The notes beneath the pieces were generated by a model. The model had not been told where the DNA came from, did not search any database, and saw nothing but the letters and a program-made list of their open reading frames with translations. From positions 39,458-103,457 of the forward strand of contig QCID01000004.1 in assembly GCA_003216895.1 (NCBI GenBank): a stretch of 64,000 nucleotides of DNA, given 5' to 3'. The translations under genes and the position numbers were made by a program. This DNA comes from Prochlorococcus sp. AG-402-K04. Lineage in GTDB: Bacteria; Cyanobacteriota; Cyanobacteriia; PCC-6307; Cyanobiaceae. Below, one piece after another: positions 5,185-38,615 of this stretch (the first letter of the stretch is position 1; the number at the start of each line of letters is the position of its first letter).

Positions 5185-6294
5185 CTAGCCTTGAGATGCT
5201 TTTGTTTTTTCAAATTTGTTCGGGGGCTGATCATTTGAAGCTTTACTAAAAACCATTCGGCCCGTCGGTGTTTGTAATGCTCCAGTCACAACTACTTCTA
5301 TTCTTTTACCAATCCATTGGAGACCCTCCTCGATCACTACCATTGTGCCATCTTCAAGATAAGCAATACCTTGTGAGTTTTCCTTTCCTTCTCTAACTAC
5401 TTTTAAATTTAACTTCTCACCAGGTTGAACTTCAGGTCTGACAGCAAGTACTAGATCACTTAAATTAAGAACTTTTATCTCTTGGACTAGAGCTACTTGA
5501 GATAAGTTGTAATCTAAAGTGATTAATATGCCTGAAAGATCTGAGGTTAATTTTAAAAGAATTTCATCAGTACCTTCTCCTTCGTATTTTGTACTATTTA
5601 TAACTAATCTTCTTCCATAACTTTCTCTTAATTGGTTAAGTAATTTTAACCCTCTTCTTCCTTTCCCTCTTTTTTCGTTGTTACTTGAATCAGATAGTTT
5701 TTGTAGCTCATCCATAACTGATTGGGCCACGATTATTTGTCCTTCTATTAGTCCAAACCTAAGTAGGGATTGAATGCGACCATCAATTATTACACTTGTA
5801 TCTAACACTTTTGCAGTGGCTGGAGTTAGAATCCCATCAGCCATTAACAAAGATTCATTGTTATTGGGATTGAAAAGACGTAAAACGGTTCGACCATGAA
5901 CATCGGCAAGGTTATATCCAAGTACTCCAAAAAAAATGTTACTAAGTACAGCGAAAATAGGCTTTACAAAAAATAATTCAGTGGGTAAAGGTAGAAGGAG
6001 AACAGGTACTAATAAAAGGGTTGCTATGACAAGTCCGAGAACTATGCCAACAGATCTACTCACAAGTAGATCTGTTGGCATAGTTCTTATTCTTTTAGTT
6101 AATTTATTTCTAAATTGCTGAAAAAGGAAGGCTATTAAAAGTCCTACAAGAGCTGTTAACCCTGATAGGGCAATTTTTAAATTCTTTAGATTAGTTATAT
6201 GATTTAAAGTCTCTTCAGGTAACCAATTCACACCAATCCATCCGGTTATTGCACCTGATACAAGAAATAAAACCAGAATAACTAAGTCTGCCAT
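5185..6294 (-). CDS. PIN/TRAM-domain membrane protein (YacL-like)
   Basis: N-terminal TM segments, PIN motif KVLDTSVIIDGRI, C-terminal TRAM domain. Confidence 0.9.
   Translation of the reverse strand: MADLVILVLFLVSGAITGWIGVNWLPEETLNHITNLKNLKIALSGLTALVGLLIAFLFQQFRNKLTKRIRTMPTDLLVSRSVGIVLGLVIATLLLVPVLLLPLPTELFFVKPIFAVLSNIFFGVLGYNLADVHGRTVLRLFNPNNNESLLMADGILTPATAKVLDTSVIIDGRIQSLLRFGLIEGQIIVAQSVMDELQKLSDSSNNEKRGKGRRGLKLLNQLRESYGRRLVINSTKYEGEGTDEILLKLTSDLSGILITLDYNLSQVALVQEIKVLNLSDLVLAVRPEVQPGEKLNLKVVREGKENSQGIAYLEDGTMVVIEEGLQWIGKRIEVVVTGALQTPTGRMVFSKASNDQPPNKFEKTKASQG
6038..6087. repeat. Perfect 23-bp inverted repeat with 4-nt loop, inside the PIN/TRAM CDS
   Basis: AGAACTATGCCAACAGATCTACT-CACA-AGTAGATCTGTTGGCATAGTTCT, all 23 pairs checked by hand. 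Confidence 0.98.
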
Positions 6295-38053: not shown

Positions 38054-38073
38054 TTTTTAAATAAAATTAAATA

Positions 38074-38107
38074 CATAAAGAAAGAGCCGAAAGGCTCTTT
38101 CTTTATG
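38074..38107. terminator. Bidirectional intrinsic terminator between convergent genes
   Basis: CATAAAGAAAGAGCC-GAAA-GGCTCTTTCTTTATG, 15-bp stem. Confidence 0.85.
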
Positions 38108-38615
38108 TTGCAACTTCATAAATACTTTCTGATATTGCATTGATTTGTTGATCGTTATAACCCCATTTATTCAGAAACTTCAAGTCCGTTCCCTTCCCTT
38201 TTGTTGCTTCAAGCAAAATATCTAGACGTTTTTTTACCTGATTTGAATCTAATAGTTTAAGTAATTCTATACACCTAATTTTTATTCTCTTTGATTGGAT
38301 TTCCTGAGGATCTTTATTATTTCGATGTGTAATTATCATTGCTGAACTCATGGCAAGATTCTTTACGGTTAAGTCAACAACAATTTCTCCAGAACTTCTT
38401 AATTGAAAAATTAATGCATCAGGAAATCTATCCATTAAAGGGCAATCTATTGAGAGACTTACAACAAAAAATCCTCTTGCTCCATCAACCGTTTTAATAA
38501 GCTCGCCAATTCGATCAGAAATAACTTCGTCACTTATTTCATCATTTTCCCAGCTTTTGCACCAAAGCATTGATGCTTGCATGGCCTCTTTAAAAGTTGG
38601 TTTCTTTTCATTCAT
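38103..38615 (-). CDS. Conserved hypothetical protein
   Basis: 170-aa ORF with coding-like composition, convergent with the BI-1 gene. Confidence 0.8.
   Translation of the reverse strand: MNEKKPTFKEAMQASMLWCKSWENDEISDEVISDRIGELIKTVDGARGFFVVSLSIDCPLMDRFPDALIFQLRSSGEIVVDLTVKNLAMSSAMIITHRNNKDPQEIQSKRIKIRCIELLKLLDSNQVKKRLDILLEATKGKGTDLKFLNKWGYNDQQINAISESIYEVAT

What the first reader, a model, noticed from the sequence alone, without database searches (positions are those of the whole stretch)
6038..6087. Perfect 23-bp palindrome with 4-nt loop inside a coding gene, coding nearly the same peptide on both strands
Seen: AGAACTATGCCAACAGATCTACT-CACA-AGTAGATCTGTTGGCATAGTTCT. The minus-strand CDS reads RTMPTDLLVSRSVGIVL; the + strand ORF 5936..6121 reads RTMPTDLLTSRSVGIVL. 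A 46-nt perfect stem inside a membrane-protein CDS is unexpected. Inference: template-switch conversion of a quasi-palindrome, or selection for an mRNA hairpin (RNase III site, translational pause after the first TMs).
Basis: partly seen in the sequence, partly recalled or inferred. Interest (0 to 1): 0.62.

Follow-up and report, generated by a model that had tools for sequence, protein, structure and literature searches.

The report
Self-correcting coding palindrome in Prochlorococcus
A 50-base stretch of a Prochlorococcus membrane-protein gene is a perfect DNA mirror of itself, and across its genus both halves keep changing together, most likely because the copying machinery keeps using one half as the template for the other and not because the cell needs the hairpin.

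Summary
In detail: 23-bp perfect arms with a 4-nt loop at 6038-6087, inside a minus-strand PIN/TRAM membrane-protein gene (5185-6294). It is not an artefact. The same hairpin occurs in about 30 separate assemblies of the genus, including single-contig genomes, with paired synonymous changes.

Third codon positions pair with third codon positions. Ten alternative Watson-Crick pair types occur at six stem pairs. Seventeen double-changed cells compare with 4.2 in shuffles, and partner sites change on the same branch about six times more often than independence predicts.

The peptide PTDLLVSRSVG, conserved across the family, is intrinsically antisense-symmetric and gave an ancestral quasi-palindrome. 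In this genus a further cluster of changes (GLIL to GIVL, GGC opposite ATG) perfected it, as a template switch would. Outside the genus the perfect stem is absent.

Later maintenance shows no G·U preference, as many transversions as background, and several lineages with broken stems. A HlyD-like gene has a 17-bp coding palindrome that behaves the same way.

Best reading: recurrent quasi-palindrome template switching. Selection for an mRNA hairpin is possible but less supported. This is a new, unusually clear member of a known kind.

The parts
5185..6294 (-). CDS, 369 aa: N-terminal hydrophobic segments (about aa 1-25, 38-61, 74-113) followed by a PIN domain (aa 163-277) and a TRAM domain (aa 289-338); first gene of a same-strand run with two clpP-family genes
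   Evidence: Pfam PF13638 and PF01938; hydropathy and synteny with the next ClpP-family gene in 61 of 61 related loci
6038..6060 (-). 3' arm of the stem in the mRNA sense (codons 79-86, SRSVGIVL)
   Evidence: 23 nt, 100% complementary to 6065-6087
6061..6064 (-). 4-nt loop (TGTG in the gene sense); varies freely in relatives (AGTT, AATT, GGTT, TATA, TTTT)
6065..6087 (-). 5' arm of the stem in the mRNA sense (codons 70-77, RTMPTDLL)
   Evidence: codon positions
5936..6121 (+). Antisense ORF of 61 aa; a by-product of the palindrome, not a gene
   Evidence: antisense matches in relatives carry a stop in one case and differ in length

Best explanation
The hairpin is a 'coding palindrome' made and kept by template switching during DNA replication. 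Step 1 (shown): the peptide PTDLLVSRSVG, conserved across the family, has codons whose first two bases are complementary across the centre (P/G, T/V, D/S, L/R, L/S), so the gene always carried a quasi-palindrome with third positions facing third positions. Step 2 (inferred from clustered changes): in the ancestor of this Prochlorococcus genus, a nascent strand folded back and copied the RTMP arm into the other arm. This replaced GLIL codons with GGC-ATW-GTT and extended the stem to about 23 bp. Step 3 (pattern shown, mechanism inferred): since then, mutations in one arm have repeatedly been copied into, or erased from, the other arm. The wobble positions therefore evolve in concert while amino acids stay fixed. 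No function of the hairpin is needed.
For: Concerted change: 6 pairs with changes on both sides, 17 such cells v 4.2 shuffled, 0 of 500 shuffles reach the covariation score, and slid controls are far lower. Same-branch changes 12.4 v 2.1 expected; shifted windows mean 2.2, max 10. Founding cluster: I84 preceded by GGC (opposite the ATG) occurs only in this genus and in L072 of another genus; the others have L. No pairing of this extent in other genera or other cyanobacterial families. DNA-level signature: non-pairs C.A 8, G.U 5, other 8; double Watson-Crick-to-Watson-Crick changes about 10 transversion v 5.6 transition, matching background 252:176. Not gene-specific: the HlyD-like 17-bp palindrome evolves in concert, including an N-to-S change coupled to Leu TTR-to-CTN. 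Coding inverted repeats of 12 bp or more: 16 v 2.7 in synonymous shuffles, phase 3 9 v 0.8; mirror repeats show no comparable excess. ExoI and SbcD not found in the genus. Precedents: PMC8794818, PMC8604942, PMC6649704.
Against: Shorter coding hairpins in the same genomes do not evolve in concert (double changes at about the control rate), so the process must depend strongly on arm length and loop size, or the two long hairpins are special for another reason. Fixation of both-arm changes is also what selection on a structure produces. The gene tree has short, weakly resolved branches and recombination may spread paired alleles, so event counts are approximate. No switch event was observed directly.
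Confidence: 0.72

Rival explanations
1. A functional mRNA hairpin (RNase III site, stability or processing element of the clp gene run, or a translational pause before the third membrane segment), kept by compensatory selection.
For: Strong predicted fold, z -6.7; covariation in a coding region; conserved position upstream of a ClpP-family gene; the gene encodes PIN/TRAM domains that in other proteins bind or cut RNA (general knowledge), so autoregulation is conceivable.
Against: No G.U preference (5 G.U v 8 C.A; 6 v 10 counted). Transversion doubles as frequent as background. Lineages with 15-18 of 23 pairs persist (L013, L027, L031-L033). Synonymous diversity in the arms is not reduced. No Rfam family reaches threshold. 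An unrelated gene behaves the same.
Confidence: 0.15
2. Mixed: template switching supplies the paired changes and weak selection (RNA or cruciform DNA) favours keeping the stem.
For: Only the two longest, tightest coding hairpins show clear concerted evolution; GGC is held in 29 of 30 genomes opposite ATG.
Against: GGC conservation alone is not exceptional: some other Gly codons are equally conserved. Nothing demands the selective part.
Confidence: 0.1
3. Chance plus codon bias acting on an antisense-symmetric peptide, with shared ancestry explaining the rest.
For: The peptide explains about two thirds of the pairing in the core.
Against: Third-position pairs in the genus: 211 paired v 86 expected from codon usage, while other genera show only 107 v 91; repeated independent double changes.
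Confidence: 0.02
4. Assembly or whole-genome-amplification chimera.
For: Many relatives are named as separately isolated Prochlorococcus assemblies, apparently single-cell genomes (titles), where inverted chimeras can occur (general knowledge).
Against: Single-contig genomes carry the stem, and variants with compensatory changes could not arise from one artefact.
Confidence: 0.01

Closest known systems
Coding palindromes of Nematomorpha mitochondria (PMC6649704)
   Same: Perfect inverted repeats inside protein-coding genes, both arms encoding conserved residues; the authors suggest template switching for formation and concerted evolution; they define repeat phase, and this one is phase 3 (third codon positions mutually complementary).
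   Different: Theirs are mitochondrial, up to 284 bp, and the longest are phase 1 or 2. This one is chromosomal, bacterial, 23 bp, phase 3, with synonymous covariation traced through a genus.
Template-switch mutations that create and maintain RNA hairpins (PMC8794818)
   Same: One event creates a perfect stem; later compensatory changes arise in one step.
   Different: Theirs are RNA genes, where structure is selected; 61% of their one-step changes were of the transition type, against about 36% here. Here the sequence is protein-coding and no structural role is evident.
Template switching between inverted-repeat arms in S. cerevisiae coding genes (PMC8604942)
   Same: Arm homogenisation in coding DNA, parallel amino-acid changes, short spacers favoured.
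   Different: Single events between yeast strains; here repeated homogenisation at one site through a bacterial genus.
Quasi-palindrome mutational hotspots in E. coli (lacZ reporters, PMC7202029; thyA hotspot and ExoI suppression cited in PMC6357072)
   Same: Mutations perfect the palindrome by using one arm as template.
   Different: Those are laboratory hotspots; this is a natural site seen through evolution, in a lineage without detectable ExoI or SbcD.

Membership tests
Coding palindrome (perfect inverted repeat within a CDS, both arms encoding conserved residues) | Perfect inverted repeat wholly inside a CDS | tested here: met
Coding palindrome (perfect inverted repeat within a CDS, both arms encoding conserved residues) | Both arms encode residues conserved in relatives | tested here: met
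   PTDLLVSRSVG conserved, with few substitutions, in 90 family sequences; weaker in other cyanobacteria
Coding palindrome (perfect inverted repeat within a CDS, both arms encoding conserved residues) | Arms evolve in concert | tested here: met
Site maintained by quasi-palindrome template switching | Clustered changes in one arm that all match the other arm | tested here: met
   GGC-ATT-GTT against a GGA-TTA-ATT-like sister state
Site maintained by quasi-palindrome template switching | Double changes have the neutral mutation spectrum, with no G.U intermediate bias | tested here: met
Site maintained by quasi-palindrome template switching | Other inverted repeats in the same genomes also homogenise | tested here: inconclusive
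   The HlyD-like site does and inverted repeats are in excess, but shorter hairpins show no excess of double changes
Site maintained by quasi-palindrome template switching | Measured correction of a mismatch in vivo | not testable with these tools
   needs a reporter assay
Structured cis-regulatory RNA | Covariation consistent with a helix | tested here: met
Structured cis-regulatory RNA | G.U tolerated more than C.A in the RNA strand | tested here: not met
Structured cis-regulatory RNA | Reduced synonymous change in the element | tested here: not met
Structured cis-regulatory RNA | Match to a described RNA family | tested here: not met
   no hit over gathering score

The most novel reading that the evidence does not exclude
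A selected RNA (or cruciform DNA) element is embedded in the membrane PIN/TRAM gene at the head of a clp gene run, possibly read by the gene's own PIN/TRAM product, with template switching supplying the compensatory changes.
Probability: 0.15. Interest if true: 0.7.

Novelty: new member of a known kind. Interest (0 to 1): 0.45.

Why it matters
Covariation of paired bases is commonly read as proof of a functional RNA structure. Here a protein-coding stem covaries strongly with no sign of RNA-level selection, so it is a natural counter-example that RNA-discovery pipelines could mistake for a new element. It also lets the rate of palindrome self-correction be compared with the mutation rate in a wild bacterial genus: about as many concerted double changes as single unrepaired ones. 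And it shows how an amino-acid sequence can seed a DNA instability that then rewrites the protein (GLIL to GIVL).

Tried and rejected
Rfam at E up to 1 gave only sub-threshold chance hits. Antisense gene: the + ORF is a by-product of the palindrome. Family-wide structural constraint: only a weak excess of paired wobbles outside the genus, z 2.3 without phylogenetic correction, not relied on. Strong purifying selection on arm codons: diversity is like the rest of the gene. All coding hairpins evolving in concert: not so for the other stems compared, mostly 9-14 bp. SbcD loss as a genus-specific cause: a match over the cut-off is missing in most sampled Cyanobiaceae (15 of 71 pass), so at most permissive. 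Viral copies of the gene: none found. A first survey run was void because separator Ns paired with each other; it was redone.

Full report
OBSERVATION. The palindrome is exact: AGAACTATGCCAACAGATCTACT-CACA-AGTAGATCTGTTGGCATAGTTCT at 6038-6087 on the + strand, arms 23 nt with 100% complementarity and a 4-nt loop. It lies in the minus-strand CDS 5185-6294, which encodes hydrophobic N-terminal segments followed by PIN and TRAM domains. The stem spans codons 70-86, a basic loop and the start of the third hydrophobic stretch. The + strand ORF 5936-6121 does read nearly the same peptide. This follows from the geometry: third codon positions face third codon positions, so the reverse complement is in frame and encodes the mirror peptide.

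DISTRIBUTION. The window genome's genus has 41 held genomes. Named relatives are Prochlorococcus assemblies, and the set includes single-contig genomes. Of 31 sequences in the crown of the genus, 16 have all 23 pairs, 12 have 20-22 and 3 have 17-18. Three sister sequences of the genus have 15, 16 and 20 pairs. Fifty-six sequences from other genera of the family have 10-18 of 23. Other cyanobacterial families have 7-14. The perfect stem is therefore a genus feature built on an older quasi-palindrome.

WHY A QUASI-PALINDROME EXISTS AT ALL. The peptide PTDLLVSRSVG is conserved across the family. Its codons are complementary at positions 1 and 2 across the centre: CCN/GGN, ACN/GTN, GAY/TCN, CTN/AGR, CTN/AGY. 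The protein thus dictates about two thirds of a 15-16 bp stem. Only wobble positions are free, and in other genera they pair about as often as codon usage predicts (107 against 91 expected, z 2.3 without phylogenetic correction). In the genus they pair 211 times against 86 expected.

FOUNDING EVENT. Other genera read G-L-I-L after SRSV. The genus reads G-I-V-L, written GGC-ATW-GTT-CT, the reverse complement of the AGA-ACW-ATG-CC arm. Compared with the sister sequences L032 and L033 (GGA-TTA-ATA/ATT), the change is a cluster of about four substitutions, all towards complementarity, with two amino-acid replacements. Isoleucine at this position occurs only in this genus and in L072 from another genus; apart from L027, which has GGG, it is preceded by GGC opposite the ATG. 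Within the genus L034 has GIIL with an inner 17-bp perfect stem, and the distant L072 has GIIM. That suggests the conversion happened more than once. The template switch itself is inferred.

CONCERTED EVOLUTION. Across 24 distinct stems, six pairs show changes on both sides and 17 cells are double-changed against 4.2 in shuffles; the covariation score is 0.128 against 0.054, reached by 0 of 500 shuffles, with slid controls at 0.038 or less. Ten alternative Watson-Crick types are present (pair 3 G-C; pair 6 A-U and G-C; pair 12 C-G and U-A; pair 15 U-A, C-G and G-C; pair 18 C-G; pair 21 G-C), so about ten double substitutions are needed whatever the tree. On a tree built with the stem masked, partner wobble sites change on the same branch 12.4 times against 2.1 expected; 312 shifted windows of the same geometry averaged 2.2 with a maximum of 10. 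Event typing gave about 15.5 Watson-Crick to Watson-Crick double changes and about 15 single pair-breaking changes.

SELECTION OR COPYING? Four results favour copying at the DNA level. First, non-Watson-Crick wobble pairs in the gene sense are C.A 8, G.U 5, other 8; an mRNA helix under selection should tolerate G.U and not C.A. Second, double changes are about 64% transversions, like 4-fold sites elsewhere in the gene (252 of 428), whereas compensation through G.U intermediates favours transitions (PMC8794818 reports 61% transition-type among one-step changes in RNA stems). Third, synonymous diversity in the arms is not lowered and several lineages live with a broken stem (L013, L027, L031-L033). 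Fourth, the same behaviour appears in an unrelated gene.

OTHER SITES. A HlyD-like gene of the genus has a 17-bp, 4-nt-loop, phase-3 coding palindrome. Of 26 genomes 18 keep all 17 pairs despite changes at pairs 2, 3, 9 and 12, including an Asn-to-Ser change coupled to Leu TTR-to-CTN in the window's own genome (L230) and in L243; its mismatches are 6 G.U and 10 C.A (counted). In 1.02 Mb of coding sequence of G002, perfect short-loop inverted repeats of 10 bp or more number 68 against 22 under synonymous shuffling, of 12 bp or more 16 against 2.7, and phase 3 is most enriched, 9 against 0.8. Mirror repeats of 10 bp or more are not in excess (16 against 21). Other coding hairpins compared between three genomes do not show more double changes than shifted controls (31 of 371 changed pairs, 8.4%, against 20 of 265, 7.5%). 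The self-correcting regime therefore seems to need a long, tight stem, in line with the short spacers reported for yeast events (PMC8604942).

BACKGROUND. ExoI, which aborts template switching in E. coli (work cited in PMC6357072), has no match in 13 genomes of the genus; the only control genome with a match is E. coli. SbcD, part of the hairpin nuclease SbcCD (function from general knowledge), has no match in the genus, but a match over the cut-off is also missing in most other Cyanobiaceae sampled, so this is permissive at most. XseA (ExoVII) is present in all four genomes at least 90% complete.

VERDICT. A real coding palindrome, most likely created and kept by replication template switching acting on an antisense-symmetric peptide. 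It works like the sites in PMC8794818, PMC8604942 and PMC6649704 and meets the sequence-level criteria for a coding palindrome. The in vivo criterion for template switching could not be tested. An RNA role is not excluded, but several of its predictions were tested and failed.

Noticed in passing
L230 (window genome G000:C6:8090-8404) and loci L222-L247: Second long coding palindrome of the genus: HlyD-like gene, NNNVTSFEVTLLL, 17-bp arms, 4-nt loop, arms evolve in concert, with an Asn-to-Ser change coupled to a synonymous Leu change.
   Followed up: yes
Loci L248-L277 (chorismate-mutase-like gene): A 15-16 bp coding palindrome (SRNNLIPDQIIS) of phase 3:1, nearly frozen across the genus except at its outermost pair.
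   Followed up: partly
G002 coding sequence, 1.02 Mb: Perfect short-loop coding inverted repeats are 3-6 times more frequent than under synonymous shuffling, most of all in phase 3; mirror repeats of 10 bp or more are not in excess.
   Followed up: partly
Genus-wide: No SbcD or ExoI match in the genus; SbcD over the cut-off in only 15 of 71 Cyanobiaceae genomes sampled.
   Followed up: partly
window 38073-38108: Perfect 16-bp hairpin with 4-nt loop between convergent ORFs, probably a bidirectional terminator.
   Followed up: no
L072 (G043, another genus): Independent approach to the same palindrome, with GIIM in place of GLIL and 18 of 23 pairs; a possible parallel template switch.
   Followed up: partly
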